A DNA stretch of 12,423 nucleotides from positions 1 through 12,423 of the forward strand of contig JAJRVC010000102.1 of NCBI GenBank assembly GCA_024277475.1. The letters run 5' to 3'. How positions within the stretch are numbered: the stretch's first letter is position 1; each line of letters begins with the position of its first letter. The DNA comes from Deltaproteobacteria bacterium (GTDB taxonomy: Bacteria; Desulfobacterota; Desulfobacteria; Desulfobacterales; JAFDCJ01). Made by a program: the position numbers and the translations under genes. This document shows, one piece after another, positions 49-12,423 of this stretch. Under the pieces are notes generated by a model that saw only the letters and a program-made list of their open reading frames with translations, was not told the origin of the DNA and did no database searches.

Positions 49-138
49 AATTTAAAATAAACCATCATTGACCGTGCGATCTGAGGCTTAGGCCCGTACG
101 CTCCGCCTTTTTCTTTGAGCCATGACGGTGAGGTTCCT

Positions 139-948
139 ATGACAGAAAATTATTTAGCGGGCGAAAAAAAAGGCAGCATTTACACCATTACCTTAAACCG
201 TCCTGAAAAAAGAAATGCGATTACGGTTGAAATGTTAACTGGCATCTGCGAGATGGCCGAAGACCAGGCGGCCGATCCTGAAATCCGGGCAATTATACTG
301 CGAGGACGGGGGACTGTTTTTTCTGCCGGCGTCGATTTTAATTCCCTTGGGGGAGCCGTTTTGCCGTATATCGGGGACGCCGGAGCCGGCGGTGCGCCAT
401 TGCGGGCGCTGATCTATAAATTCCAGCAGTATTTAAATCGCCTGGAAGCCGTTGAAATTCCCATCATCTGTACTATGCACGGCCGGGCGTTAGGCCTGGG
501 CGTCGAGATCGCCCTGGCCTGTGATATTTTGTTGATGGCCGACGATTGCCTTTGGGGACTGCCGGAGCTGAAGCTGGGTGCCATTGCCGATCTGGGCGGC
601 ACCTCAAGGCTGTCACGGGTTTTGGGATCTTATCGGGCCATGGAAGTTTTCATGACCGCACGCAACTACAGCGCCCGGCAAGCACTCGACTGGGGGCTGG
701 TCAATTACCTGTACCCGGAAGCAGAGCTTGCAGCCCAAGCTGAAGCTCTGGCCCACGACATTTGCAGCACAGCACCGCTGGCCGTGGGAGCGGCTAAAAA
801 AATTATCAAACGCGGTGAAAGCGTTGACCTGATGACCCAGCTGGACATGGAGGCCAACCTGAACAGTATCCTGCTGCGGACCCAGGATTTTCATGAAGGC
901 ATCACCGCCATGATGGAAAAGCGTGCCGCGCAATGGAAGAAGAAATAG
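139..948 (+). CDS. Enoyl-CoA hydratase/isomerase (crotonase) family protein
   Basis: A 269-residue crotonase, the usual family length, predicted to add water across (or otherwise transform) a 2-enoyl-CoA in beta-oxidation-type metabolism in the cytoplasm. Visible landmarks are the N-terminal LNRPEKRNAIT segment (19-29), the oxyanion-hole strand FSAGVDF (61-67) and the second oxyanion loop HGRALGLGVE (114-123). Both acidic residues of true hydratases are present: E123 in GVEIALACD corresponds to Glu144 of rat mitochondrial enoyl-CoA hydratase, and E143 in GLPELKLG corresponds to Glu164, with the same 20-residue spacing. A hydratase is therefore more likely than an isomerase. The frame is open back to a TTG at 115, but the ATG at 139 follows a plausible GTGAGG ribosome site and begins the family-like sequence, so I chose it. 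The acyl-CoA dehydrogenase gene follows on the same strand after 170 nt. The exact acyl substrate cannot be read from the sequence. Confidence 0.9.
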   Translation: MTENYLAGEKKGSIYTITLNRPEKRNAITVEMLTGICEMAEDQAADPEIRAIILRGRGTVFSAGVDFNSLGGAVLPYIGDAGAGGAPLRALIYKFQQYLNRLEAVEIPIICTMHGRALGLGVEIALACDILLMADDCLWGLPELKLGAIADLGGTSRLSRVLGSYRAMEVFMTARNYSARQALDWGLVNYLYPEAELAAQAEALAHDICSTAPLAVGAAKKIIKRGESVDLMTQLDMEANLNSILLRTQDFHEGITAMMEKRAAQWKKK

Positions 949-955
949 GCTGACC

Positions 956-997
956 GTTCAGGGGTTTGGGGTTCAGAGGTTCAGGGTTGAGGCCTAA
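956..997. repeat. Degenerate 7-bp tandem repeat, six units
   Basis: Six in-phase 7-mers immediately after the crotonase stop: GTTCAGG, GGTTTGG, GGTTCAG, AGGTTCA, GGGTTGA, GGCCTAA. The same 7-bp period is seen upstream of the gene at 14-48. The right part of the tract also forms one arm of the hairpin at 978-1005. Confidence 0.55.
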
Positions 998-1005
998 CCC
1001 GAACC
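978..1005 (+). terminator. Possible hairpin terminator after the crotonase gene
   Basis: GGTTC (978-982) pairs with GAACC (1001-1005) and GGGTT (984-988) pairs with AACCC (996-1000), with a single bulged A at 983 and a 7-nt loop. This gives ten base pairs, followed by TTTAT. The T-run is short, so it may only attenuate transcription into the acyl-CoA dehydrogenase gene, or it may be a chance product of the repeat tract. Confidence 0.4.
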
Positions 1006-1118
1006 TTTATCGGCAGAAAAACAAATATAGATAACCCGCAACCTGTAAACGGGTGCAAATTCTTTTGAAATAAAGGGCCGACGGGCTCAAACTTTTTCTG
1101 TAAAAAGAGGAAAAGATC

Positions 1119-2933
1119 ATGGTCCAGGTAATTTCAGATCGAAGAGATATTGATTTTGTTCTTTATGAGCAATTTAAAGTCGATGAATTCACCAGCCATG
1201 AGAAGTATGCGGATTTTAATCGCAAAACCTTTGACCTGATTATTAATGAAGCGCGTAACCTGGCCGTCAAAGAGATATTGCCGACCCTCGCTGAAGGGGA
1301 CCGCAACGGGGCGACTTTTGAAAACGGGGAGGTGAAGGTCCCACAATGTTTTCACCGACCCTACCAACTGATGCGCGAAGGCGAGTGGACGGCAATGATT
1401 GCCGATCCCGAACTCGGTGGACAGGGATTGCCGCGCAGTATTGCCCAGGCTGCTTCCGAGTATTTAAGCGGTGCTAATTACGCCTGCACCCTGTATGCCT
1501 TTGTGGGGCATGCCGCCGGAGAGCTGATTGAATATTTCGGTACTGAAAAGCAGAAACAGATATTTTTGAAGAAGATGTACACCGGCCAATGGAGCGGCAC
1601 CATGCAGTTGACCGAGCCCCAGGCAGGATCAGACGTGGGGGCGTTAACCACCACCGCCGTGAAAAATCCGGATGGGACCTACAGCCTGACGGGAAACAAA
1701 ATTTTTATCACCGGTGGTGACCATGACCTGGCTGAAAACATCATTCACCCGGTGCTGGCCCGCATTGAAGGGGCTCCCAAGGGAACCCGCGGGATCTCGC
1801 TGTTTATCGTCCCAAAGATCTGGGTCAACGACGACGGCAGTCTGGCAGAACCCAACGACATTGTCTGCACCGGTATCGAGGAAAAAATGGGTATTCACGG
1901 TAGTGCGACGTGTGCCATGGCCTTGGGCAGCAAGGGCCAATGTCGCGGGCTTTTGCTGGGAGAAGAAAACAAGGGCATGCGGGTGATGTTTTATATGATG
2001 AACGCCGCACGCCTGGCGGTGGGGATTATCGGGATGATGTGCGGATCTGCGGCCTACATGTATGCGCTGAGCTATGCCCGGGAACGGTTACAGGGAAAAG
2101 ATCTGACCCAAATCGCCGACGCGAATGCCCCCCAGGTTCCGATTATCCGGCACCCGGATGTGCGCCGCATGCTGATGTGGATGAAAAGCCATGTGGAGGG
2201 TATGCGCAGCCTGGCATACTATATTGCCTGGATGTTCGACAAACAGGTCTGTTCGGATAGTGAAGAAGAAAAGGCGCATTACCAGGGCCTGATCGATCTT
2301 CTCACGCCCGTATTCAAATCCTACTGTTCGGACCGTGGATTTGACGTCTGCGTGGAAGCTATCCAGGTTTACGGCGGATACGGGTATACCCGGGAGTATC
2401 CCGTTGAACAGCTGTTGCGGGACTGCAAGATTGCTTCCATCTACGAGGGAACCAACGGCATCCAGGCTATGGATCTTCTGGGACGTAAGCTGGGCATGAA
2501 GGGCGGCGCAGTGTTTCTGAATTTTTCCCATGAAATTCATAAGGTCACCGCTGAGGCCGCCGGAATCAAGACACTTAAAGCCCCGGCTGCAAAACTGGAT
2601 GAAGCTGTAAAACGCCTGGGAGAGGTCGCCATGCACCTGGGCAACACCGCCCTGTCGCCGGACGTCAAAGTGGCCTTTGCATTCGCCAAACCGTTTCTGG
2701 ATGTCGTCGGTGATATGTGCATGGGCTGGATGCTCCTGTGGCGGGCGACCATCGCAGCCCCGCAGCTCCAGCAAGCGGCCAAAAGCAAAGACGCCGCTTT
2801 TTATGAAGGCCAGCTGCATACCGCAAAATATTTCATAAACTCCATTCTACCGATTACCCTGGGAAAAATGGATGCCATCAAAGCCAGTGACCCGGCGTCC
2901 ATAGAAATTTCAGTGGCTGCGTTCGGCGGCTGA
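1119..2933 (+). CDS. Acyl-CoA dehydrogenase, long DmdC-like type
   Basis: A 604-residue FAD-dependent acyl-CoA dehydrogenase that would introduce the alpha-beta double bond in an acyl-CoA and pass electrons to electron-transferring flavoprotein. The length is well above the usual ~380-400 residues and fits the DmdC-like branch, which has an N-terminal extension and an extra C-terminal domain of about 130 residues. Landmarks: the FAD/substrate motif MQLTEPQAGSDVG (162-174), the helix with YGGYGYTREYPVEQLLRD, and the catalytic-base segment IYEGTNGIQ with E443 at the position of Glu376 of medium-chain acyl-CoA dehydrogenase. The residues after about 475 form the extra C-terminal domain. The ATG follows AAAGAGG at a good distance. 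Its neighbour upstream is the crotonase, so the pair would do successive beta-oxidation steps. Chain-length preference is unknown; 3-methylmercaptopropionyl-CoA, the DmdC substrate, is possible but nothing nearby supports DMSP metabolism. Confidence 0.92.
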   Translation: MVQVISDRRDIDFVLYEQFKVDEFTSHEKYADFNRKTFDLIINEARNLAVKEILPTLAEGDRNGATFENGEVKVPQCFHRPYQLMREGEWTAMIADPELGGQGLPRSIAQAASEYLSGANYACTLYAFVGHAAGELIEYFGTEKQKQIFLKKMYTGQWSGTMQLTEPQAGSDVGALTTTAVKNPDGTYSLTGNKIFITGGDHDLAENIIHPVLARIEGAPKGTRGISLFIVPKIWVNDDGSLAEPNDIVCTGIEEKMGIHGSATCAMALGSKGQCRGLLLGEENKGMRVMFYMMNAARLAVGIIGMMCGSAAYMYALSYARERLQGKDLTQIADANAPQVPIIRHPDVRRMLMWMKSHVEGMRSLAYYIAWMFDKQVCSDSEEEKAHYQGLIDLLTPVFKSYCSDRGFDVCVEAIQVYGGYGYTREYPVEQLLRDCKIASIYEGTNGIQAMDLLGRKLGMKGGAVFLNFSHEIHKVTAEAAGIKTLKAPAAKLDEAVKRLGEVAMHLGNTALSPDVKVAFAFAKPFLDVVGDMCMGWMLLWRATIAAPQLQQAAKSKDAAFYEGQLHTAKYFINSILPITLGKMDAIKASDPASIEISVAAFGG

Positions 2934-2978
2934 ATCCGAAAAAAGATAATTCAAGACCCCAAATGTGAAAGATTGTAA

Positions 2979-3185
2979 ATGAATAATACCTCGATTTTAA
3001 TATGGGGAGTGATATTTGGATCAATAGGTTTGGGATTTTTTGTTTATGGCAAAAAACAAAAAACTATGATCCCACTTTTTAGCGGTATTGGGTTAATGGT
3101 ATTGCCATATTTCATTTCGAATATATATATTCTGATCCTTTCAGGTATTGTTTTGATAGCATTACCTTTTTTTATTAGACTTTAA
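2979..3185 (+). CDS. Small conserved-type membrane protein, unknown function
   Basis: A 68-residue, almost wholly hydrophobic protein with three likely membrane segments (about 5-23, 30-47 and 49-66). A short basic stretch, KKQK (25-28), follows the first and marks a probable cytoplasmic loop. From memory it resembles a family of small membrane proteins of Proteobacteria, sometimes labelled as amino acid transport proteins without experimental support; I would not transfer that function. The gene is visibly richer in A+T than its neighbours, uses many ATA/ATT/TTT codons and has only a weak ribosome site (AAAGATTG). It starts 45 nt after the acyl-CoA dehydrogenase stop, so it could be co-transcribed, but the composition suggests a separate origin. 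It is the last gene on the + strand before the convergent - strand block. Confidence 0.75.
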   Translation: MNNTSILIWGVIFGSIGLGFFVYGKKQKTMIPLFSGIGLMVLPYFISNIYILILSGIVLIALPFFIRL

Positions 3186-3208
3186 GGAACATATAAATTT
3201 TGTATTAC

Positions 3209-3268
3209 ATATGAGCCGTGGCACTGGGCATTTAATTAGGGGTACCGCGTTAGTGCTGTTACTCATAT
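3209..3268. repeat. Imperfect inverted repeat between convergent gene blocks
   Basis: ATATGAG (3209-3215) pairs with CTCATAT (3262-3268), and GCACT (3221-3225) pairs with AGTGC (3252-3256). The arms are separated by a 5-nt internal loop on each side, with a 26-nt apical loop. The element lies where the + strand and - strand genes converge, so it may stop transcription from one or both directions, but there is no clear T-tract on either strand. It might equally be a remnant of a mobile element; I see no transposase. Confidence 0.35.
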
Positions 3269-3320
3269 CGTTAAATACATAGAAATTCACAAAACCAATC
3301 GCTGAACCTGACCGGAAAAA

Positions 3321-3482
3321 TTAATAATAGAGATCCGAAGGCCCTTTGTATTCATAGATCGTAAGGGCTACCCTGGCACCGCCTTTAGCAAAGGTGCGTA
3401 CCGCGGCAAAACCGATGCCGGTTTCACTGCCGGCACCGGTGATGAGTGCGACTAGGTTTGCAAACTGGGTTTTGTCTGTCAT
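3321..3482 (-). pseudogene. Truncated short-chain dehydrogenase/reductase, N-terminal remnant
   Basis: Reading the - strand from the ATG at 3482 gives 53 codons ending in TAA at 3321. Residues 11-41 are a typical SDR first beta-alpha-beta unit: VALITGAG followed by a GIG glycine motif (TGAGSETGIG, residues 15-24) and AKGGARVALT (32-41), the NAD(P)-binding Rossmann start. After ALT the sequence changes to an unrelated tail ending GPSDLYY. Intact SDRs are about 250 residues, so roughly 200 residues, including the catalytic Tyr-x-x-x-Lys, are missing. I find no continuation downstream in any - strand frame. A weak ribosome site (AGGG) precedes the ATG. It sits 134 nt after the MoaD-like gene on the same strand, suggesting that a dehydrogenase once ended the operon and was cut by a deletion. 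A translated short product cannot be excluded. Confidence 0.7.
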
Positions 3483-3616
3483 GATTCGGCCCTAAATAAT
3501 TTGTTCTTTTGGACACTGATTTGCATGGATTAACTCGAGGTAAAAATCCAGAACGGTCTACCTCCGCTGGAAATCCTGGAAGTCGTGTTCGGGGTCTAAA
3601 CTAATTATAAAAGGCG
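3483..3616. other. Spacer between the MoaD-like gene and the SDR remnant
   Basis: 134 nt without a recognisable gene. On the - strand a short open stretch ends at a TAG near 3550 and codes for residues such as DPEHDFQDFQRR. This could be the end of a deleted gene, but it is too short to assign. With 3186-3320 and the SDR remnant it forms a 431-nt region lacking any intact gene. Confidence 0.4.
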
Positions 3617-3895
3617 CTATCCTCCGGCCAGCATGAGAAAAAATGTCAGCACGTCTCCATCGGTCAATGGCTGCTCGTCGGATTGAATCGTTTTATCTGC
3701 TTTAACCCCCAAAACTTTGCGGTCAAACGTATTCTTCTGCCGGTCCCACAGTTGATTGGGCATGTTTTCTCGGAACCGCCGTCCGATTTCTTTGATGAGA
3801 TCTTCATAAATCGCACCCTGGGGCAGTTCAAATTCGGCCGACCGGGCCCCGACCCAGTCGGCCAGTATGCCATGGAAGTGCGCGCTGATTTTCAT
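3617..3895 (-). CDS. MoaD/ThiS-family ubiquitin-like protein linked to the AOR
   Basis: A 92-residue beta-grasp protein ending in the Gly-Gly tail (LAGG) that MoaD and ThiS proteins use as a thiocarboxylate sulfur carrier. In molybdopterin synthesis MoaD supplies the dithiolene sulfur of pyranopterin. Other visible features are the MKISAHFHGILADWVG beta-hairpin start and the C-terminal strand LTDGDVLTFFLMLAGG. The ATG overlaps the stop of the aldehyde oxidoreductase gene by 4 nt (ATGA), which indicates translational coupling. A dedicated MoaD-like gene directly behind a tungsten aldehyde oxidoreductase is a common arrangement and suggests a role in making or inserting the tungstopterin of that enzyme. 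The protein is slightly longer than classical MoaD (about 80 residues) because of a central insertion around NQLWDRQKN. It could also be a non-cofactor sulfur carrier, but the context argues for cofactor supply. Confidence 0.85.
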   Translation of the reverse strand: MKISAHFHGILADWVGARSAEFELPQGAIYEDLIKEIGRRFRENMPNQLWDRQKNTFDRKVLGVKADKTIQSDEQPLTDGDVLTFFLMLAGG

Positions 3896-5724
3896 GACCC
3901 GTGTAGGTCTTCTGCGGCCCGGGTCAGTTCAAGCTCAATGAGTTTTTCCTTCGAGGGCTTGCCGGTCTCCCAGCCCCAGCCGCGGTAGCTGTAATATTCC
4001 TTGAGCATCGCTTCCATATCGGGCCGGCTGCCGGCAGTGGCACCCTCCTGCAAAGGATCCAGGCAGATTCCGGGCAGTCCATCGTGTTGCCGGGTAACTC
4101 CCAGCCGGTTGCTGATGGCCCGTTTGAGGTTCACCGACCGTTCGCCGGCCGCCAGCAATTTTTCCGGGTCATAGTCCCAGCCCGTGAGCGCATTCAACAT
4201 CTCACACAGCTGTGTCACCTGGATTGGAGAAAACTTGCATAGTGTCAAGGCATCGTACATATCCTTGAGGCTCTGAAACTTGGCCGCAGGCTCTCCTTTG
4301 CTTTCGGAGGCCATACGTTCGGAGGGCAGGATCATATATTCCAGCACCATGTTGCCCAGATCGATATTGTAATAATCCCCCTTGAGGTGACAGGCACCCC
4401 GGGGTCCGGTAGCATAGGAAAGTGCCTGGCCGTGAAACGCCCTTCCGTCATGCATGGGCATTTCCAGCCCCTTGACCTGGGCGGCCTCACCTTCATCCCG
4501 ACCGAGTTCCCGGGCCATGGCCAAAGTCCCCCTGGACAACAGAACGCCGATACCTTCCTGGTTCACGATTTTTTTCACCAGATCCACAACCGCCCGTCCG
4601 TCCCCCCAGTTAAGCTCCATCCCCGCTTGCTCCGTGCTCAGTACCCCCTGATCGTAAAGATAGAAGGCATAGGCGATGGAAACCCCTGCAGAGATGGTAT
4701 CAAGGCCGTTGACGTTGCAAAGGTGATTGGCCTCGACAATCGAGTCCAGATCCGTATTCATACACAAGGGACCGAAAGCCATGGTGGTCTCATATTCCGG
4801 CCCGTCCACGTTGAGGCCCGGTTTGAAATCCCTCAGCTCCCGGCCGCATCCGATCGGACAGCCCCGGCAAGCGTAATTTGCCACCGAGTATTTCTGACGC
4901 AGGGTTTGCCCGGTAACCTTATCGACCGCAAACACGCTTTTGGTGAAATATTTTGCCGGTGCGTCGCCCAGAACCATGGCCATGTCGGTATACATCAGGG
5001 TTCCGTATTCCCGAAACGCCACCGAGACCAGGTTGCCGTTGATATCCTTGACCGCCTGTTTGGCAAGCTGTGCGACCTTGCCGCTGTCAGCCGATTTTGG
5101 TCGCAGATTGCCGCCGGCCGCCACGGCCTTCAGGTTTTTGGAGCCCATGAGCGCTCCCAGGCCGCACCGGCCGGCGGCTCGGCCCTTGTCATTGACGATA
5201 CAAGCATATTTGATAAGTTGTTCTCCTGCCGCGCCGATGCAGGCCACACTGAGCTTGTCGTCTTTGGTTTCTTCTTTGATCATTTGCTGGGTGGCATAGG
5301 TGTCCTGGCCCCACAAAGCGGCGGCATCCCGAATTTCAGCTTTTCCACCCGCAAGGTAGAGATAAACGGTCTCGGAGGCCTTGCCGGTGATGATGATGCC
5401 GTCCCAGCCTGCACCTTTCAGCCGAAATGGAAAAACTCCACCGCTGGTGGCTTCTCCCCAGAAACCGGTCAGCGGAGAAATTCCGGCCACCGCGTATCGG
5501 CTGACCATTGGCAACGGTGAAGTAGTGAATGGTCCGGTGGCCATGACCATTGGATTTTCCGGCGCCAGCGGATCGGTGCCTGGAGCCAGCCGTTCATAAA
5601 TCAATGCGGCTGCCATGGTGGCGCCGCCAATGTATTTTTTGCAGAAATCCTCGGAAAGCGGTAGATCCTGAGTGGTCCGGTTGGTGAGATCTACTTCTAA
5701 AAACCTGCCGTGATAACCTTTCAT
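3892..5724 (-). CDS. aor: Tungsten-type aldehyde:ferredoxin oxidoreductase
   Basis: A 610-residue enzyme of the AOR family (about 605 residues in Pyrococcus furiosus), predicted to oxidise aldehydes to carboxylates with ferredoxin as acceptor, using a tungsten bis-pyranopterin and one [4Fe-4S] cluster in the cytoplasm. The N-terminal cofactor domain spans about 1-205 and the helical domains follow. Cluster ligands are complete: C286, C289 and C293 in CRGCPIGC, with C495 in LTLCKF as the fourth. The candidate active-site acids in GPEYETT (308-314) and the histidine in PRGACHLKGD (H446) are also present, at places similar to the Glu/His pair proposed for P. furiosus AOR. The frame is open upstream to 5898, but the ATG at 5724 has a strong AGGAGGG site and begins the family-typical MKGYHGRFLEVDL, so the upstream part is rejected. 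It lies 16 nt after the alcohol dehydrogenase and overlaps the MoaD-like gene, so it probably removes the aldehyde that the dehydrogenase makes. No separate electron-transfer subunit is seen. Confidence 0.93.
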   Translation of the reverse strand: MKGYHGRFLEVDLTNRTTQDLPLSEDFCKKYIGGATMAAALIYERLAPGTDPLAPENPMVMATGPFTTSPLPMVSRYAVAGISPLTGFWGEATSGGVFPFRLKGAGWDGIIITGKASETVYLYLAGGKAEIRDAAALWGQDTYATQQMIKEETKDDKLSVACIGAAGEQLIKYACIVNDKGRAAGRCGLGALMGSKNLKAVAAGGNLRPKSADSGKVAQLAKQAVKDINGNLVSVAFREYGTLMYTDMAMVLGDAPAKYFTKSVFAVDKVTGQTLRQKYSVANYACRGCPIGCGRELRDFKPGLNVDGPEYETTMAFGPLCMNTDLDSIVEANHLCNVNGLDTISAGVSIAYAFYLYDQGVLSTEQAGMELNWGDGRAVVDLVKKIVNQEGIGVLLSRGTLAMARELGRDEGEAAQVKGLEMPMHDGRAFHGQALSYATGPRGACHLKGDYYNIDLGNMVLEYMILPSERMASESKGEPAAKFQSLKDMYDALTLCKFSPIQVTQLCEMLNALTGWDYDPEKLLAAGERSVNLKRAISNRLGVTRQHDGLPGICLDPLQEGATAGSRPDMEAMLKEYYSYRGWGWETGKPSKEKLIELELTRAAEDLHGS

Positions 5725-5731
5725 GGCTTTA

Positions 5732-5738
5732 CCCTCCT
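5732..5738 (-). promoter_or_regulatory. Strong ribosome binding site of the AOR gene
   Basis: On the - strand the sequence AGGAGGG lies 7 nt before the ATG at 5724. It falls in the 16-nt gap after the alcohol dehydrogenase stop. It decides the start of the aldehyde oxidoreductase against the longer frame reaching back to 5898. Confidence 0.8.
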
Positions 5739-5740
5739 GA

Positions 5741-7009
5741 TTAGAAATCGATGTCCTTGCCATCGTATGCGTAGCGCATGATTTGTTCACATTGTGCCAC
5801 TGTGATGGGGCGCGGGCTGAGATAGCAGCTGATATCGCCGTAAGCCAGCTCGGCCAGCTTCGGCAGCCTGGCTTCAAAATCTTTGCGGGTGATCCCAAAA
5901 TCCTTGAGCGCCAGCGGAATATTTAGCTCTGTTAAAAATTGCCGGGTTTTTGTCACCAGGTTGTCCAGCCCCTGCTGAGCATCGGTCGCCGGAATATCCA
6001 ACGCCTTGCAAAGGGTCAGATGCTTGTCCGTTACTTTAGCGCAAAACTGCATGGAGTGGGGAATAAAAAAGCCGACACATAGCCCGTGATGCATATGAAA
6101 CACCGCTCCCAGGGAATGGCCCAGGCTGTGCGTAATATGACAGCCACTCATGCCAAAAGCAATGCCGGCGATATTGGCGGCCATCATCATCCGAAAGCGA
6201 GCCTCGCGGTCCTGGCCATTTTTATAAGCCTTGGGCAGCCACTTGAAAACCATTTCAGTGGCTCTCAATGCCAGCGGATCGGTGTAATCATTGCCCGAGG
6301 GCGCGATGGCGGCATCCATGGCATGGGCCAGGACATCCACCCCGGTGCCGGCCGTCAGCTCCAGAGGCATGGACAGGGTAAACTCCGGTGACAGGATGGC
6401 CACATCCGGCACCAACTCGCCATGGGCAATGGGGATCTTGCGATCGGCGGTGGTATCGTGGAAGACAGCGGCCCCGGTGCATTCGGACCCCGTGCCTGCG
6501 GTGGTGGGAACCGCAGCCAGTATTGCTTTTTGGCGCAAATTGAGCTTGTCAAGCGGAGACACCATCCCCAGATCCGTCAAATCAGGCCGTTCATACAGAA
6601 TCCAGGCCCCTTTGGACAGATCCATCACCGAACCACCGCCCACGGCCGTGATCAGGTCCGGTTCAAATTGCTTGAGTACCTCTGCACACTGCGTGACGTT
6701 TTCCATAGGTGCTTCCGGAAGGGTTTTGGCCCAAATTTGAGTTTCGAATCCGCCGGATTTCAAAAAATCCGCCACTTGCTTTGCATTTGATTCGTTGAAT
6801 GCGTCGGTGACAATAAAAGCGCGGTTTTTTGCGCAGCGGTTAGCCAGCGCATCCATGGTCGACGCCCCGATAACCGGACCCTGCGGAATAACGTTGAATC
6901 CGGCATAAATTTTGGGGGTTCCAAAGATGGTGGTCAGGCCCCGTATGGATGACGAAAGGGCCAGTGGAACCAGCGCCTTTAGAGTAGGATCTTCAAACCA
7001 GTAACTCAT
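5741..7009 (-). CDS. Iron-containing (group III) alcohol dehydrogenase
   Basis: A 422-residue NAD(P)-dependent dehydrogenase expected to interconvert a primary alcohol and its aldehyde. The N-terminal nucleotide-binding half carries GGGSVMD (124-130) and PTTAGTGSE (168-176). The helical C-terminal half holds the metal site: D225 and H229 in GVDVLAHAMD, H294 in HSLGH and H308 in HHG, the same Asp/His/His/His set as FucO, so the enzyme should bind Fe2+ (or Zn2+). The length is slightly above the usual 380-400 residues because of an N-terminal extension of about 25-30 residues. The start is fixed by AAAGGAGG, which overlaps the stop of the acyl-CoA synthetase gene 15 nt upstream. The aldehyde oxidoreductase follows after 16 nt, giving a tight alcohol-to-aldehyde-to-acid pair. 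Alcohol chain length cannot be inferred. Family members also act as lactaldehyde, butanol or 4-hydroxybutyrate dehydrogenases. Confidence 0.92.
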   Translation of the reverse strand: MSYWFEDPTLKALVPLALSSSIRGLTTIFGTPKIYAGFNVIPQGPVIGASTMDALANRCAKNRAFIVTDAFNESNAKQVADFLKSGGFETQIWAKTLPEAPMENVTQCAEVLKQFEPDLITAVGGGSVMDLSKGAWILYERPDLTDLGMVSPLDKLNLRQKAILAAVPTTAGTGSECTGAAVFHDTTADRKIPIAHGELVPDVAILSPEFTLSMPLELTAGTGVDVLAHAMDAAIAPSGNDYTDPLALRATEMVFKWLPKAYKNGQDREARFRMMMAANIAGIAFGMSGCHITHSLGHSLGAVFHMHHGLCVGFFIPHSMQFCAKVTDKHLTLCKALDIPATDAQQGLDNLVTKTRQFLTELNIPLALKDFGITRKDFEARLPKLAELAYGDISCYLSPRPITVAQCEQIMRYAYDGKDIDF

Positions 7010-7024
7010 GAGCCGTTCCTCCTT

Positions 7025-8536
7025 TCAGGTGTGCTTGCGCAACTCTTTGCGCAAAATTTTTCCAATGTGGCTTTTGGGTAGACAATCTAGAAATTCTACA
7101 AATTTAGGACACTTGTTTTTTGAAAGATATTGCCGGCAGAAATCGATTATTTCTTGCTGCCCGATGGTAGCACCTTTTTTTAAGACGATAAACGCCTTTA
7201 CTGCCTCTCCCATAATGGAATCCGGGCTCCCGATAACCGCCGCTTCAGTGACCGACGGGTGTTGATAGAGCACTTCTTCCACATCATGAGGGTAAATGTT
7301 GAATCCTCCGCGGATGATGAGATCTTTTTTTCTTTCGACGATATACAGATATCCGTCTGCGTCCACCCGGGCCATATCCCCGGTATACAGCCACCCATTG
7401 CGGATGGTCGTGGCGGTTTCTTCGGCCATCCGGTAATACCCGGCAAAAACGCCGGGGCCGCTGATAATCAACTCGCCGACTTCCCCCGCAGGGACTTCCC
7501 GATGCTTGTCATCAACAATGCGAACGCTGGTTTCGGGGATGGCCTGCCCCACCGAGCCCGGTTTCACCTCCCGATCGAAATAGTGCATGCTCACCACCGG
7601 GGAGGCTTCAGACAATCCATACCCTTCCCGGATAACACAATCGAATTCACTTTGAAAGGCTTTAAAAATCTTGGCCGGCAAGGGGGCGGAACCGCTGGTT
7701 ACCCCCTTGAGGCAGGATAGATCGTATTTTCGCTTCACCGCATCATCCGCCTGCAGCATAAGGGCGAACATGGCCGGTACGCCAGGAAAATGCGTCACCC
7801 TGTATTTGTCAATCAGGCGAAATGCTTCTTCCACGTTAAAGCGTGGCATCATGATTGTCAGGGTTCCATAGATCAACAGGATATTCATGGTGGTAAAGCC
7901 AAAGGAATGAGACAGCGGCAGTGCCGCCAGCCTTATATCGGATCTTTTGGGATTGCCGGTAGAAGCGCTGTTGACAGCGTTTGTGTACAGGTTCTTGTGG
8001 GTCAGCATGACCCCCTTGGGGGTGCCCGTGGTGCCGGATGTATATAAGATAACCGCCACGTTATCATCCTGGATGGGGATTATCGGGGGGCTGTCCGAAG
8101 CAGTCTTGATGAGATCCCAGAAATTTAAAATCCCTTCCCCCGGGTTTTGATCCACGGCAATGATGTGTTCTAATTGCTTTGCGCCCTTTGCCGCCGCAGC
8201 CACCTTGGGTAGCAGTTTCTCACCCGTTATTACTGCCTGCGCCCCGGAGTTTATCAGGATATGGTTCAGTTCTCTATCGTTTAACAGGGGCACAGCCGGC
8301 ACGATAATGCCTCCCGCTCTTAATATGCCCTGATAACTGATGAGAACCTCAGGGCAATTGGGCAGCATAACGACGATTTTGTCATCCGGTTTCATTCCCA
8401 TATTATTGAGGGCGGATGCCATTTTTTTTGAATCCTGGAGCAATTCCCGGTTGGTGGTTGGCCTTTCATTGAAAATCAGGCATTCATATTCACCGAAATT
8501 CTGGAAATTTTTTTCTGCTAACTGGATCAAATTCAT
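7025..8536 (-). CDS. AMP-forming acyl-CoA synthetase (fatty-acid CoA ligase)
   Basis: A 503-residue member of the ANL adenylating superfamily, predicted to activate a carboxylic acid to acyl-CoA with ATP, via an acyl-AMP. Motifs in order: the phosphate-binding loop YTSGTTGTPKG (165-175), EGYGLSE (304-310), TGD (385-387), the hinge ERKKDLIIRGGFNIYP (401-416) and the catalytic lysine K493 in IGKILRKEL near the C-terminus. The length fits medium/long-chain or aromatic acid CoA ligases without extra domains. The start ATG at 8536 follows GGAG at 5 nt; a second ATG 4 nt upstream is out of frame. It lies 38 nt after an MBL hydrolase and 15 nt before the alcohol dehydrogenase. In this setting it most likely activates the acid released by the aldehyde oxidoreductase. 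Substrate size and class are not determined. Confidence 0.92.
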   Translation of the reverse strand: MNLIQLAEKNFQNFGEYECLIFNERPTTNRELLQDSKKMASALNNMGMKPDDKIVVMLPNCPEVLISYQGILRAGGIIVPAVPLLNDRELNHILINSGAQAVITGEKLLPKVAAAAKGAKQLEHIIAVDQNPGEGILNFWDLIKTASDSPPIIPIQDDNVAVILYTSGTTGTPKGVMLTHKNLYTNAVNSASTGNPKRSDIRLAALPLSHSFGFTTMNILLIYGTLTIMMPRFNVEEAFRLIDKYRVTHFPGVPAMFALMLQADDAVKRKYDLSCLKGVTSGSAPLPAKIFKAFQSEFDCVIREGYGLSEASPVVSMHYFDREVKPGSVGQAIPETSVRIVDDKHREVPAGEVGELIISGPGVFAGYYRMAEETATTIRNGWLYTGDMARVDADGYLYIVERKKDLIIRGGFNIYPHDVEEVLYQHPSVTEAAVIGSPDSIMGEAVKAFIVLKKGATIGQQEIIDFCRQYLSKNKCPKFVEFLDCLPKSHIGKILRKELRKHT

Positions 8537-8574
8537 GCATACTCCGAAGATGTTATAGCAGAGACCAGATCGAA

Positions 8575-9810
8575 TCAGGTGGCTTCGGCCGCCTGTTTTT
8601 CAAAGTCCCGGCCCCGGTAGAAAATACTTTTGGCGATAAAACTATCCGCTTTGTGTCCCATGATTCCCAGCAACTTGGCCTTTAGCAGGCGCATCTGACG
8701 TTCTTTATCATTGTCGAGCTCGGCAGACAGCGCCATATCCACAAACTGCAAGGCCATGGCTTCCTGCTTTTTTTTCGCAAGCCGGCGGGCATGTTCCATC
8801 ACCCGGTCTTTTCCAATCAGTTGGACCACCTCCCGGGCAATGGCAGTTCTTTTTGGTGGAAACAGGTTTGAGGGATTGCCATCGTACCAGCCCGTATACT
8901 GGCGCAAAATTCCATGCACCACAAAGGTCGGGCACCCGTATCGGGGAGACAGGAATTCATTGTCAAGCATGTGACCCGGCAGTTTGACATCTTGCAGAAT
9001 ATCTTCGTAGCCCATACCGGCGTTGAGCCGTTCGATCACTTCCCGGTGCAGGTAACGCAGGGCTTTTGAAATTTTGAGACACACCGTGCGGACATTTTCC
9101 TGGCCCTCGATGACCGGGCCATGTCCGGGTACCAGCACCCGGGGGGCTCTGGCAACAATGGCCTCCAGCGCTTCGGCCCATTCCAGGGTGTAGCGCTGGA
9201 CCTTGAAGGGGTTGCCGACATTGGGAAACGAATAAACAACAAAGTCCCCGGCAAAGACCGTCTCTTTTTCCGGTACCCACACCCATAGATGGTCATCGGT
9301 TTCTCCCAACCCGTGGAAGGCATGAAAATCGATGCCGCCGACAGTGGTGCTGAGGCTCTGGTCAAAAATAACATCCGGATTGTGTTCCGGCAGGGGAAAT
9401 GCCTGTTGCTGTTGTGCAACATTGAACTGGATGCGGTTGATTTGCTCATGATAGTCGGCCAGCAGACGGTATTTTTCAAAGCGCTTCAGAACATTACGGT
9501 GGGCAATGACCCGTGGCGCTGGGCTTGTGTTGTGTTCGGCCTCCGTGAAAAGGTGTTTCAGGTGCACGGCATGGTCCAGGTGCCCATGGGTGACAAATAC
9601 GGTATGGACTGGATCTGTTGAGACCTGCCGCAGCAGGGCCATCGTTTTTTTCAGAAACGAGCCCACCGGCATATCAATGATAACTAGGCCGGCGTCGGTT
9701 TGAACGATCCCCGTGTTACCAAAACCGGGGATCATCCACACCCCCGGTGCCGGATTGACCGGGCCTTCGTCGTTGAGGGCGAGCTTTCCGAATTGTTTTT
9801 TTTCCGCCAT
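8575..9810 (-). CDS. MBL-fold hydrolase with alkyl-sulfatase-type dimerisation region
   Basis: A 411-residue protein with an N-terminal metallo-beta-lactamase domain (about 20-240) and a helical C-terminal part resembling the dimerisation domain of alkyl sulfatases. The dinuclear-metal motif is intact: H75-G-H77-L-D79-H80, D189 in FAGDF and H230 in VPGHG. GETDDH (169-174) precedes the metal-binding Asp. The C-terminal region has the GWYDGNP segment (307-313), close to the GWFDGNP hallmark of the Bds1/SdsA alkyl sulfatases. It lacks the SCP2-like end that the neighbouring hydrolase has, and no signal peptide is visible, so it should be cytoplasmic. The product is a hydrolase of unknown substrate; sulfate esters, thioesters or carboxylic esters are all possible. 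It is a paralogue of the partial gene at the right edge, sharing NP-KVQRY after the metal-binding Asp. It lies 82 nt after the alkyl-sulfatase-like gene and 38 nt before the acyl-CoA synthetase. Confidence 0.85.
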   Translation of the reverse strand: MAEKKQFGKLALNDEGPVNPAPGVWMIPGFGNTGIVQTDAGLVIIDMPVGSFLKKTMALLRQVSTDPVHTVFVTHGHLDHAVHLKHLFTEAEHNTSPAPRVIAHRNVLKRFEKYRLLADYHEQINRIQFNVAQQQQAFPLPEHNPDVIFDQSLSTTVGGIDFHAFHGLGETDDHLWVWVPEKETVFAGDFVVYSFPNVGNPFKVQRYTLEWAEALEAIVARAPRVLVPGHGPVIEGQENVRTVCLKISKALRYLHREVIERLNAGMGYEDILQDVKLPGHMLDNEFLSPRYGCPTFVVHGILRQYTGWYDGNPSNLFPPKRTAIAREVVQLIGKDRVMEHARRLAKKKQEAMALQFVDMALSAELDNDKERQMRLLKAKLLGIMGHKADSFIAKSIFYRGRDFEKQAAEAT

Positions 9811-9892
9811 TTTAAGAATTCCCTTTTGCAGGTGGTGCGGATATCCATCGCACGTTTGCGGGTTGGTATAAGAAACTTTGCGCCTGTGCTGT

Positions 9893-11602
9893 TTACCGGA
9901 GTGTCAGCAGGATATTTTTTGGCGGTCTGGGTTTTTCGAAACAGCTGAAAAATTTGATAAGGTTGTCCATATCACCGTCCACCTGAATTTTCCCTGTCTT
10001 AAAGCCCTGTTCCCAGGTGGCCAATCCCAGCAAAATGTCGGCCAGATAGCTATTGTCAAGGGTGACGGCAATATCTACCTTGTCAGGAAGCCGGGGATGA
10101 AACTGCGCAATTCCCCTGCGGATTTCAAGGGCATGGGCGGCATCGACATCCGGGAAATGAAATCCCATGGTCATGTGGACATCCAGGGCTTTTTCGGCTG
10201 CCAGGCGCAATCCCATGGCCTCCACTTTTACATCCGCAGGCAGCGCCCGCGCAACGCCGATTCCGCTGATTTTACCGGAAAGATCGAATTGACCGCCTTC
10301 CAGCTCAATGGCTGAAGACAGGTACCAGCATCTCCAGTTGGAGTTAAGGGTTTTAAATCCGAGCTGACGCAAGGCTTGCGCCTTGATTCGCCGTGATTGC
10401 ATATCATTCTTGTCCACGCGGATGGTATAGGTGGTCAGCTCCGCCGCCCACTGGTAATCCCCGGCGTCAAGCGCCTTCTGTGCTTCTGCCACCACCCGGT
10501 CTTTTCCTCCCATGAGCTGAACATGGCGGGCGGCAGATTCGGTCGGTGCGATGGGATCCAGCGTGGTCGGATCGCCTTCGAACCATCCGATTTCTCCTGT
10601 ATAAATTTCGCGCACACAGTGTTTCACCGTGCCGTAAAATTCTCCCAGCCAGGGATGAACGGCCAGGTGCTCCGGCAGTTTTACCAGATCCACCAGCTCA
10701 TCGGGCGTATAGCCCTGGTTCATATAGCGGATTGTCTGGTTGTGAACAAACTGGATGGCATCCCGGTAAGCGGTCAGCACATCGGCAACATTTTTACGGC
10801 CGGACACCGGACGGCCATGGGAAGGGGCCATGAAGCGGGCATCAAATGTGCGCAGAACATCGATGCTCTTGTACCACTGTTTGGGGTCCCGGTAGCGCGT
10901 GCCGCGAATGGTGTGCAGGTTAGGGAAGGTTTCTCCCTGGATGACCTCGGCGCTGCAAAGTACGTCCAAATCCGGGAACCACACGGCAATTTCATCATCG
11001 CATTCACTGGGCACCCAGAAAATATACATTTTTACGCCTGCGATTTCCAGATCCAGGGTTTCTTTAATGGTAATGGTTGGCAGAATCAGTGAGGCTTCCT
11101 GCATCAATACGTCCGGTCCGATGCCGTTATTGACACGTCCTTCAGGGCCTAATTTCAGATAATTTCCAAAGGTATAGGCGCTTCTGACTCCCAGAATGGC
11201 ACCGATACCGCCGGTGGCACTGACAATAAAATTGGCCAGCATGGTTTCATGGGCGATGATGTCACACTGGCCGGACTGGACCTGTTCATCGGAGACAAAG
11301 CCTTTGACGCCCCAGACATGGTCTGCATGGTTGTGGGTATGAATAACAGCCTTTATCGGCTCGTCGGTAATTTTGCAAAAGTCTTCATTGATCCGGCGGC
11401 ATTTTCCCACATCCTCAACAGGGTCAATGATGATGATCCCGTCGGTTCCCACGATCATGTGGGTATTGGCGAGGCCATAGCCAACGGCCAGAAAATAATT
11501 GTCCGCGACTTTGTATATTTTCTCCTCCATCTTGCGGGAATGTTCAGTCAGCTTTGGATGAATTGTTTCCGCAGGTTTATCATACGCACGATTAATGGTC
11601 AT
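9893..11602 (-). CDS. Alkyl-sulfatase-family MBL hydrolase with SCP2-like C-terminus
   Basis: A 569-residue protein with the three-part build of type III alkyl sulfatases such as SdsA1 and BDS1: an MBL catalytic domain (about 25-285), a helical dimerisation domain (about 290-430) and an SCP2-like lipid-binding domain (about 435-558). Those enzymes cleave the ester of long-chain alkyl sulfates to alcohol plus sulfate. Metal motif: H90-N-H92-A-D94-H95. Likely further ligands are E200 or E204 in PSECDDE, E219 in CSAEV and H262 in SHGRP. The segments RGTRYRDPKQW (233-243), YGTVKHCVREIY (323-334) and GWFEGDP (339-345) match the family pattern. Departures: the classic AEN-TH-LHN block reads AEVIQGETFPNLH, and the usual SHHWPxWG reads SHGRPVSG, so the substrate may differ from dodecyl sulfate. 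Secreted sulfatases carry a signal peptide; this one does not. The start at 11602 has an AAGGAG site; the frame runs open to 11938 but that part overlaps the upstream gene. Confidence 0.88.
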   Translation of the reverse strand: MTINRAYDKPAETIHPKLTEHSRKMEEKIYKVADNYFLAVGYGLANTHMIVGTDGIIIIDPVEDVGKCRRINEDFCKITDEPIKAVIHTHNHADHVWGVKGFVSDEQVQSGQCDIIAHETMLANFIVSATGGIGAILGVRSAYTFGNYLKLGPEGRVNNGIGPDVLMQEASLILPTITIKETLDLEIAGVKMYIFWVPSECDDEIAVWFPDLDVLCSAEVIQGETFPNLHTIRGTRYRDPKQWYKSIDVLRTFDARFMAPSHGRPVSGRKNVADVLTAYRDAIQFVHNQTIRYMNQGYTPDELVDLVKLPEHLAVHPWLGEFYGTVKHCVREIYTGEIGWFEGDPTTLDPIAPTESAARHVQLMGGKDRVVAEAQKALDAGDYQWAAELTTYTIRVDKNDMQSRRIKAQALRQLGFKTLNSNWRCWYLSSAIELEGGQFDLSGKISGIGVARALPADVKVEAMGLRLAAEKALDVHMTMGFHFPDVDAAHALEIRRGIAQFHPRLPDKVDIAVTLDNSYLADILLGLATWEQGFKTGKIQVDGDMDNLIKFFSCFEKPRPPKNILLTLR

Positions 11603-11611
11603 AAACGATTG

Positions 11612-11617
11612 CTCCTT
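11612..11617 (-). promoter_or_regulatory. Ribosome binding site of the alkyl-sulfatase-family gene
   Basis: AAGGAG on the - strand lies 9 nt before the ATG at 11602. It fixes this start over the longer open frame reaching to 11938. Confidence 0.7.
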
Positions 11618-11639
11618 ATGCTGGCGTGCTTTTTCGTTT

Positions 11640-11816
11640 TTATTCGCTGTGCGAATTTTTACCGCGTTTATCCTGGGACTCCAGCACGCCGGGGATGCCG
11701 GATATTTCTTGCTGCGGCACTTTGCCTTGCATTTCCCGGGAAGCCGCCATAAAAATGCCCATGGCCATCGTGGATGTTTCCGCTGCCGCCCGGCCAGTAT
11801 AAACCGATGCGGTTGC
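11640..11816 (-). other. In-frame coding continuation beyond a TAG codon
   Basis: Directly after the TAG at 11817-11819 the same frame runs on for 58 sense codons to a TAA at 11640. The deduced residues include SVYTGRAAAETSTMAMGIF and AASREMQGK. These read like the ordinary C-terminus of this MBL family, and they line up with KAKLLGIMGHKADSFIAKSIF near the end of the paralogue at 8575-9810. With this extension the gap to the next gene is 37 nt, typical of this operon; without it the gap is 214 nt. So this stretch is, or very recently was, part of the upstream protein. The last 25 or so residues are less clearly family-like. Confidence 0.7.
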
Positions 11817-12423
11817 CTAGCCCACGGCGGGGTTTTTGCCGGAACCGAGAAAGGCCCAGTCGGCCAGATGACAGGCCAGGCGAAAATCTCCTGTCCGGGC
11901 GAGTTCCCGGGCGCGGCGTACCAGGTTATCGACACCACCGGCCAGTTCGATGATTTCTGCGGCTAATTTATTTTCAGATGCGGGTTTGAGATGCGACGGC
12001 ATGCCGTCGTACCATCCGCCGTTGAGCCGCCAGATGTTGCGGACGATAAATTCCGGCTCGTCATAGACGGCATGCAGGTACGGCTTGTCAAGCAGTTTGC
12101 CCGGTGCTTTAACGGTATGCACAATGGTGTCCAGGGAGGCTCCCCGGTTCATCAGGGCAATGGTCTGCGCATGCAGGGACTCCAGCAAAACCGCGGTGTC
12201 TTCGAGCGCCTGCCCGATGCGATCCGCCCCGATGATGGGCCATCCGTGGCCGGGCAGCAGAATTTCCGGCTCCATTGCCTGCATTTCCCGCAGAGCGCAG
12301 GCCCAGCCTTCGCAATAGCGCTGGACCTTTTGCGGATTGCCGGCATTCGGCACGCACCAGAAAACGAGATCTCCCGTGCACAGCACCCGCGTGTCGGGGA
12401 AAAAAATCCAGGTATGGTCATCG
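11817..12423 (-). CDS. MBL-fold hydrolase, 5' end outside window, in-frame TAG
   Basis: The C-terminal half of an MBL hydrolase that enters from the right edge (first complete codons spell DDHTWIFFPD) and meets a TAG at 11817-11819. What remains of the catalytic domain shows the metal-binding Asp in CTGDLVF and a histidine in LLPGHGWPIIG. The helical C-terminal part has GGWYDGMPSHL and a helix ending CHLADWAFLGSGKNPAVG. It is a paralogue of the 411-residue MBL gene at 8575-9810: NAGNPQKVQRYCEGWA here corresponds to NVGNPFKVQRYTLEWA there. The HxHxDH motif must lie upstream of the window. The TAG falls inside the conserved C-terminal region rather than at its end, so the annotated protein is probably short by about 58 residues unless the codon is read through. 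The substrate is unknown. It is the most promoter-proximal visible member of the - strand block. Confidence 0.82.
   Translation of the reverse strand, partial: DDHTWIFFPDTRVLCTGDLVFWCVPNAGNPQKVQRYCEGWACALREMQAMEPEILLPGHGWPIIGADRIGQALEDTAVLLESLHAQTIALMNRGASLDTIVHTVKAPGKLLDKPYLHAVYDEPEFIVRNIWRLNGGWYDGMPSHLKPASENKLAAEIIELAGGVDNLVRRARELARTGDFRLACHLADWAFLGSGKNPAVG

What the first reader, a model, noticed from the sequence alone, without database searches (positions are those of the whole stretch)
11640..11822. In-frame TAG inside an MBL/alkyl-sulfatase-like gene, with the conserved C-terminus continuing after it
On the - strand the frame reads NPAVG-TAG-ATASVYTGRAAAETS and stays open for 58 codons to TAA. 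The residues after TAG look like family sequence (pattern VY-xx-RA-AETS-MA-GIF) and align with the intact paralogue in this window, where a Leu stands at the TAG position; as I recall the family, Glu is usual there. The distance to the next gene also becomes normal only with the extension. Explanations are a fresh nonsense mutation (GAG or CAG to TAG), a sequencing error, or recoding. Pyrrolysine is a candidate: some Desulfobacterota, including a gutless-worm symbiont, are known to place it in many proteins outside the methylamine methyltransferases. The other two TAG-terminated genes here both meet another stop soon after (3 and 14 codons), which fits a genome where UAG is leaky, though TAG clearly also ends genes.
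Basis: partly seen in the sequence, partly recalled or inferred. Interest (0 to 1): 0.75.

Follow-up and report, generated by a model that had tools for sequence, protein, structure and literature searches.

The report
Amber stop inside intact-looking alkyl sulfatase gene
A bacterial gene is interrupted by one stop codon (TAG) but looks intact on both sides of it; its closest relatives have the genes to read TAG as the rare amino acid pyrrolysine, so this may be a harmless extra pyrrolysine site, though that is not proven.

Summary
TAG lies at 11817-11819 (- strand) in an alkyl-sulfatase-like metallo-beta-lactamase gene. The frame stays open for 58 codons to TAA (11640-11642), and the Pfam Alkyl_sulf_dimr domain runs across the TAG. 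None of 83 homologous alignments has a stop there. The closest relative, Desulfobacterales bin G001, is collinear at about 83-86% DNA identity and has CGG (Arg).

No genome is held for the window, so its own pyl genes could not be searched. The two nearest genomes found, G001 and G012, both carry PylSc and tRNA-Pyl(CTA). G001 also has PylC, PylD and two TAG-containing methylamine methyltransferases.

Since the split from G001 the extension changed as much as the intact copy (7 versus 8 residues), and no other damage is visible. Against a dedicated role: the site is variable, TAG is not conserved, TAG ends 175 of 710 called G001 genes, back-up stops are not enriched, and G001 has other stray TAGs, one upstream of a frameshift.

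Best reading: a sense-to-TAG change tolerated through pyrrolysine suppression, a known kind of event. A recent plain nonsense mutation remains a serious rival.

The parts
11640..12422 (-). alkyl-sulfatase-like MBL-fold gene, 5' end outside the window, read through TAG to TAA (stop 11640-11642)
   Evidence: Alkyl_sulf_dimr across the TAG; 83% identical to intact L001
11817..11819 (-). in-frame TAG; CGG (Arg) in the closest relative
11643..11816 (-). 58-codon conserved extension after the TAG
9893..11602 (-). second alkyl-sulfatase-like gene, next in the same direction, 37 bases after the TAA
   Evidence: collinear in L001
8575..9810 (-). third alkyl-sulfatase-like gene (the intact paralogue)

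Best explanation
The window comes from a Desulfobacterales bacterium of a lineage that encodes pyrrolysine. A sense codon (Arg in the nearest homologues) at a variable position of an alkyl-sulfatase-like gene changed to TAG. Charged tRNA-Pyl competes with release factor 1 at this UAG, so at least part of the protein is made full length with pyrrolysine at a position that accepts many residues. The change is close to neutral and persists; it gives the enzyme no new chemistry. Shown: the TAG, the conserved extension, no other damage in the visible part, pyl genes in the nearest genomes. Inferred: pyl genes in this genome, decoding at this codon, near-neutrality.
For: Single lesion; domain and conserved residues continue beyond it. 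Beyond the site the window branch has 7 changes and the intact L001 branch 8, with P0003 as outgroup; dN/dS 0.295, bootstrap 0.13-0.64. The window is collinear with two G001 contigs. PylSc over cut-off in G001, G012, G013 and G014, which hold the best acyl-CoA dehydrogenase matches to the window together with G010, with tRNA-Pyl beside it in all six loci scanned. G001 has PylC and PylD over cut-off and trimethylamine and dimethylamine methyltransferases with one TAG each. Site variable in the family, Lys included.
Against: The window's own pyl genes are unseen. No homologue seen has TAG here. TAG is an ordinary stop in G001: 175 of 710 called stops. No back-up-stop enrichment. G010, 77% identical in the same dehydrogenase, has no PylSc, and PylB was not found in G001, G013 or G010. 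Other stray TAGs in G001 sit at a Leu conserved in five relatives (PilT) or upstream of a frameshift (sigma factor), which looks more like damage than use. None of the listed rows of 174 AMP-binding matches in six PylSc-bearing genomes has an internal stop. CGG to TAG needs two changes.
Confidence: 0.55

Rival explanations
1. Plain nonsense mutation, recent or segregating, not decoded to a useful level: the protein ends at residue 201 of the visible part and loses two predicted helices, and the gene is failing or expressed at a reduced level.
For: TAG unique to the window among the homologues seen; TAG common as a stop in G001. In-frame stops are reported as widespread and mostly short-lived in bacteria in general, with dN/dS below 1 (PMC7918605, abstract and section 2.1). 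Stray TAGs in G001 include a sigma factor that also has a frameshift and an IS66 piece.
Against: No other stop or frameshift in the visible part; no excess of changes beyond the site; the lineage has a UAG-reading tRNA, so even a nonsense TAG would probably be suppressed to some extent when it is charged. A very young mutation would leave no traces, so this cannot be excluded.
Confidence: 0.3
2. Sequencing or assembly error at the site.
For: Single contig, reads not available; the local difference from L001 can also be aligned as one substitution plus a one-base insertion and a one-base deletion, read by eye.
Against: The other genes of the window are open, and the frame is kept on both sides; two compensating errors within a few bases would be needed for the indel version.
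Confidence: 0.06
3. Pyrrolysine selected for a function in this enzyme.
For: Pyl genes in the relatives.
Against: The position is variable and in a predicted helix of the dimerisation domain, and TAG is not conserved in any homologue seen.
Confidence: 0.06

Closest known systems
Pyrrolysine in tRNA-His guanylyltransferase (Thg1) of Methanosarcina acetivorans by neutral evolution (Heinemann 2009: title seen in reference lists of PMC2933860 and PMC3639795, and cited for neutral evolution in passages of PMC3639795; paper itself not read)
   Same: A sense codon turned to TAG in an ordinary gene of an organism with tRNA-Pyl, apparently without need
   Different: That case concerns an archaeon (experimental detail recalled, not read); here neither the decoding nor the organism's own pyl genes are shown
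Pyl-using marine Deltaproteobacteria (Kivenson 2021, PMC8318568; abstract and sections 9 and 19 read)
   Same: Same broad group; tRNA-Pyl, PylS and a TAG-containing trimethylamine methyltransferase, with selenocysteine as well
   Different: The sections read treat pyrrolysine in methylamine methyltransferases only; no alkyl sulfatase is named there
High pyrrolysine content in an Olavius algarvensis deltaproteobacterial symbiont (Zhang and Gladyshev 2007; title seen in reference lists; not held)
   Same: Deltaproteobacterium with pyrrolysine in many proteins (from the title)
   Different: Whether its list holds an alkyl sulfatase could not be checked
In-frame stops in bacterial genes (Belinky 2021, PMC7918605; abstract and section 2.1)
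   Same: One stop in a gene otherwise under purifying selection
   Different: General bacterial set; here a dedicated UAG-reading tRNA exists in the nearest relatives
Sec-alkylsulfatase and SdsA1 type alkyl sulfatases (4av7, 2yhe, 2cfu)
   Same: Same MBL and dimerisation-domain architecture by sequence (best E 2.3e-18)
   Different: Distant; the window's homologues are about 444 residues, without the extra C-terminal domain seen in the second paralogue

Membership tests
Alkyl-sulfatase-like MBL-fold proteins | Alkyl_sulf_dimr domain over the curated cut-off | tested here: met
   101.1 bits against 26, read through the TAG
Alkyl-sulfatase-like MBL-fold proteins | N-terminal metal-binding motif | not testable with these tools
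   that part of the gene lies outside the window; present in L001 and in the two paralogues by eye
Pyrrolysine-containing proteins | in-frame TAG with homologous sequence continuing after it | tested here: met
Pyrrolysine-containing proteins | tRNA-Pyl, PylS and PylBCD in the same genome | tested here: inconclusive
   own genome not held; present in the nearest relatives, PylB only in G012 and G014 of five genomes searched
Pyrrolysine-containing proteins | TAG conserved at the site in homologues (as in the methylamine methyltransferases) | tested here: not met
   0 of 83 alignments; none of the 120 listed homologues is truncated there
Pyrrolysine-containing proteins | downstream RNA structure (present in only some known cases) | tested here: not met
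   z-scores -0.58 and -0.54 against shuffles
Pyrrolysine-containing proteins | pyrrolysine found in the protein | not testable with these tools
   needs proteomics
Pseudogene | further lesions beyond the stop | tested here: not met
   no other stop or frameshift in the 260 codons seen
Pseudogene | relaxed selection beyond the stop | tested here: inconclusive
   7 versus 8 branch changes, dN/dS 0.295 (0.13-0.64); a young mutation would look the same

The most novel reading that the evidence does not exclude
In this Desulfobacterales lineage pyrrolysine is a routine residue outside methylamine metabolism: UAG suppression is efficient enough that sense codons drift to TAG in catabolic and housekeeping genes (this enzyme; PilT in the relative G001), so part of the proteome depends on pyrrolysine supply.
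Probability: 0.12. Interest if true: 0.65.

Novelty: new member of a known kind. Interest (0 to 1): 0.4.

Why it matters
If confirmed, it adds a candidate bacterial pyrrolysine protein outside the methylamine methyltransferases. It also gives a clear pair (Arg in G001, TAG in the window, same gene cluster) to test whether a lineage with tRNA-Pyl lets amber codons drift into ordinary genes. Standard annotation would call this enzyme truncated.

Tried and rejected
Back-up stops after TAG as a sign of leaky UAG: rejected, no difference between the three stops. An RNA structure after the TAG: no better than shuffles. Codon-usage scans of 957,150 bases of G001 (121 pieces) for interrupted genes: one search gave mostly what looked like antisense noise and was dropped. 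In one search I judged by eye 74 extensions with score above 5 (TAG 21, TGA 23, TAA 30). I took 3 TAG cases as clean interruptions (two methylamine methyltransferases, PilT; confirmed by Pfam or NCBIfam) and one as a transposase piece. I read 3 TGA cases as selenocysteine-type sites (two formate dehydrogenases, one DsrE-like; names recalled, not searched). I recognised no TAA case. This eye count is not a statistical test. AMP-binding family in six PylSc-bearing genomes: 174 matches, no internal stop in the rows listed, list cut short. A TGA inside an AOR match of G001 turned out to be its ordinary end. Searches of 58 relatives with the enzyme gave 14 with a match at E up to 0.001, none with an internal stop, and none but G001 closer than 35% identity. 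Two papers on wider pyrrolysine use are not held. Paper searches; no title or abstract start listed names a pyrrolysine-containing alkyl sulfatase, but only open-licence papers were searched.

Full report
What is there. On the - strand, TAG at 11817-11819 interrupts an open frame that runs from the window's end (12422) to TAA at 11640-11642. The 5' part of the gene lies outside the window. Read through, the product is an alkyl-sulfatase-like metallo-beta-lactamase-fold protein: Alkyl_sulf_dimr covers residues 98-232 of 260, and the TAG is residue 202. Two further alkyl-sulfatase-like genes follow on the same strand (9893-11602, 8575-9810), then an AMP-binding ligase, an iron alcohol dehydrogenase and an AOR-type oxidoreductase; an acyl-CoA dehydrogenase and an enoyl-CoA hydratase lie on the + strand.

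The site in relatives. One scan of GTDB genome contigs kept 80 loci, the best of 129 that encode a relative. All 83 alignments crossing the site have a sense codon: E 25, A 24, R 11, M 5, Q 4, D 3, K 3, L 3, S 3, T 1, G 1. The closest is L001 (83% identity, CGG). A protein search listed the best 120 of 7649 homologues; each listed row covers at least 88% of the query, so none of them is truncated at this site. P0002 and P0003 have Arg too; among 31 close homologues the column holds E 10, R 7, K 5, Q 3, N 2, T 2, M 1, D 1. CGG to TAG needs two changes, and four of six bases differ from L001 at the TAG and the next codon.

Is the extension under constraint? Beyond the site the window and L001 are less alike (39 of 58) than before it (176 of 201), but so are L001 and P0003 (35 of 58 and 164 of 201): a property of the family. 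With P0003 as outgroup the window branch has 7 changes beyond the site and the L001 branch 8; before it 8 and 7 (columns where all three differ are left out, 10 before and 4 beyond). dN/dS between window and L001 is 0.118 (bootstrap 0.07-0.19) before and 0.295 (0.13-0.64) beyond. R395, E399, S401 and T402 (L001 numbering), invariant in a 34-row alignment that includes the window, lie beyond the TAG. A predicted model of L001 (mean pLDDT 83.6) has helices 382-398 and 402-415; the site, residue 386 by my count, is in the first, so truncation would remove most of both. Nothing shows decay, but a mutation too young to leave traces would look the same.

Where the window comes from. No genome is held for it. 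It is collinear with two G001 contigs: 505-7013 with L151 (82.6-86.4% DNA identity, with 2936-3877 missing there) and 9605-12422 with L001 (85.8%). The AOR is 91% identical to G001 and 76% to G014. The acyl-CoA dehydrogenase is 89% identical to G012, 86% to G001, 79% to G014 and 77% to G013 and G010. L001's record calls its organism a Desulfobacterales bacterium.

Pyrrolysine in that lineage. PylSc over the curated cut-off occurs in 11 of 58 relatives of G001, among them G001, G012, G013 and G014, but not G010. Of seven genomes chosen by the enzyme gene alone, only G001 has it. tRNA-Pyl(CTA) was found in all six PylSc-bearing pieces scanned (G001, G008, G011-G014), of the twelve genomes with a PylSc match. 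The G001 contig holds tRNA-Pyl, PylSc (319.4 bits), PylC (395.6) and PylD (241.9), the proteins all over cut-off. PylB was found in G012 and G014 but not in G001, G013 or G010; the G001 bin is in small contigs, so absence there is weak evidence. One of six MTTB matches in G001 has an internal TAG; read through, the trimethylamine and dimethylamine methyltransferases score 732.3 and 517.1 bits, over cut-off. Decoding of UAG in this lineage is inferred from these classical cases.

Is TAG used more widely? Against: 175 of 710 called stops in 957,150 bases of G001 are TAG; second stops are no commoner after TAG; none of the listed rows of 174 AMP-binding matches in six PylSc-bearing genomes has an internal stop. 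For, weakly: G001 has one TAG in an otherwise whole PilT, while the 51 other listed PilT matches have none; the residue is Leu in the five relatives aligned, not an obviously tolerant place. A sigma-factor gene of G001 has TAG where G012 has Gln, but also a one-base insertion further on. An IS66 piece has TAG as well. These may be damage as easily as use.

Judgement. Two facts matter: an intact-looking gene with one TAG, and a lineage with the machinery to read it. The most economical account is a near-neutral sense-to-TAG change tolerated because UAG is partly read as pyrrolysine. PMC3639795 argues this for a Thermincola gene and cites it for Methanosarcina genes (passages). A plain recent nonsense mutation is the main rival, since in-frame stops are reported as widespread and mostly short-lived in bacteria in general (PMC7918605, section 2.1). 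A selected role for pyrrolysine here is unlikely, since the position is variable and no homologue seen shares the TAG.

Noticed in passing
window 115-12422: Three alkyl-sulfatase-like genes lie with an AMP-binding ligase, iron alcohol dehydrogenase, AOR, acyl-CoA dehydrogenase and enoyl-CoA hydratase: together a plausible route from an alkyl sulfate through alcohol, aldehyde and acid to acyl-CoA and beta-oxidation.
   Followed up: no
window 2936-3877: About 940 bases, with a small MoaD/ThiS-like reading frame at 3617-3895 (named by eye), are absent from the collinear G001 contig L151, where the two flanks are about 30 bases apart.
   Followed up: partly
L216:3995-5158 (G001): PilT gene with one in-frame TAG in place of a Leu found in the five relatives aligned; 51 other listed PilT matches have no stop.
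   Followed up: partly
L168:1961-2536 (G001): ECF-type sigma factor with TAG where G012 has Gln, plus a one-base insertion further on.
   Followed up: partly
L169, L196, L214 (G001): In-frame TGA in what look like two formate dehydrogenases and a DsrE-like protein, probably selenocysteine (read by eye).
   Followed up: no
L191:1-3019 (G001): In G001 the order is tRNA-Pyl, PylSc, PylC, PylD with no PylB between them, and PylB was not found in G001 or G013, though G012 and G014 have it right after PylSc.
   Followed up: partly
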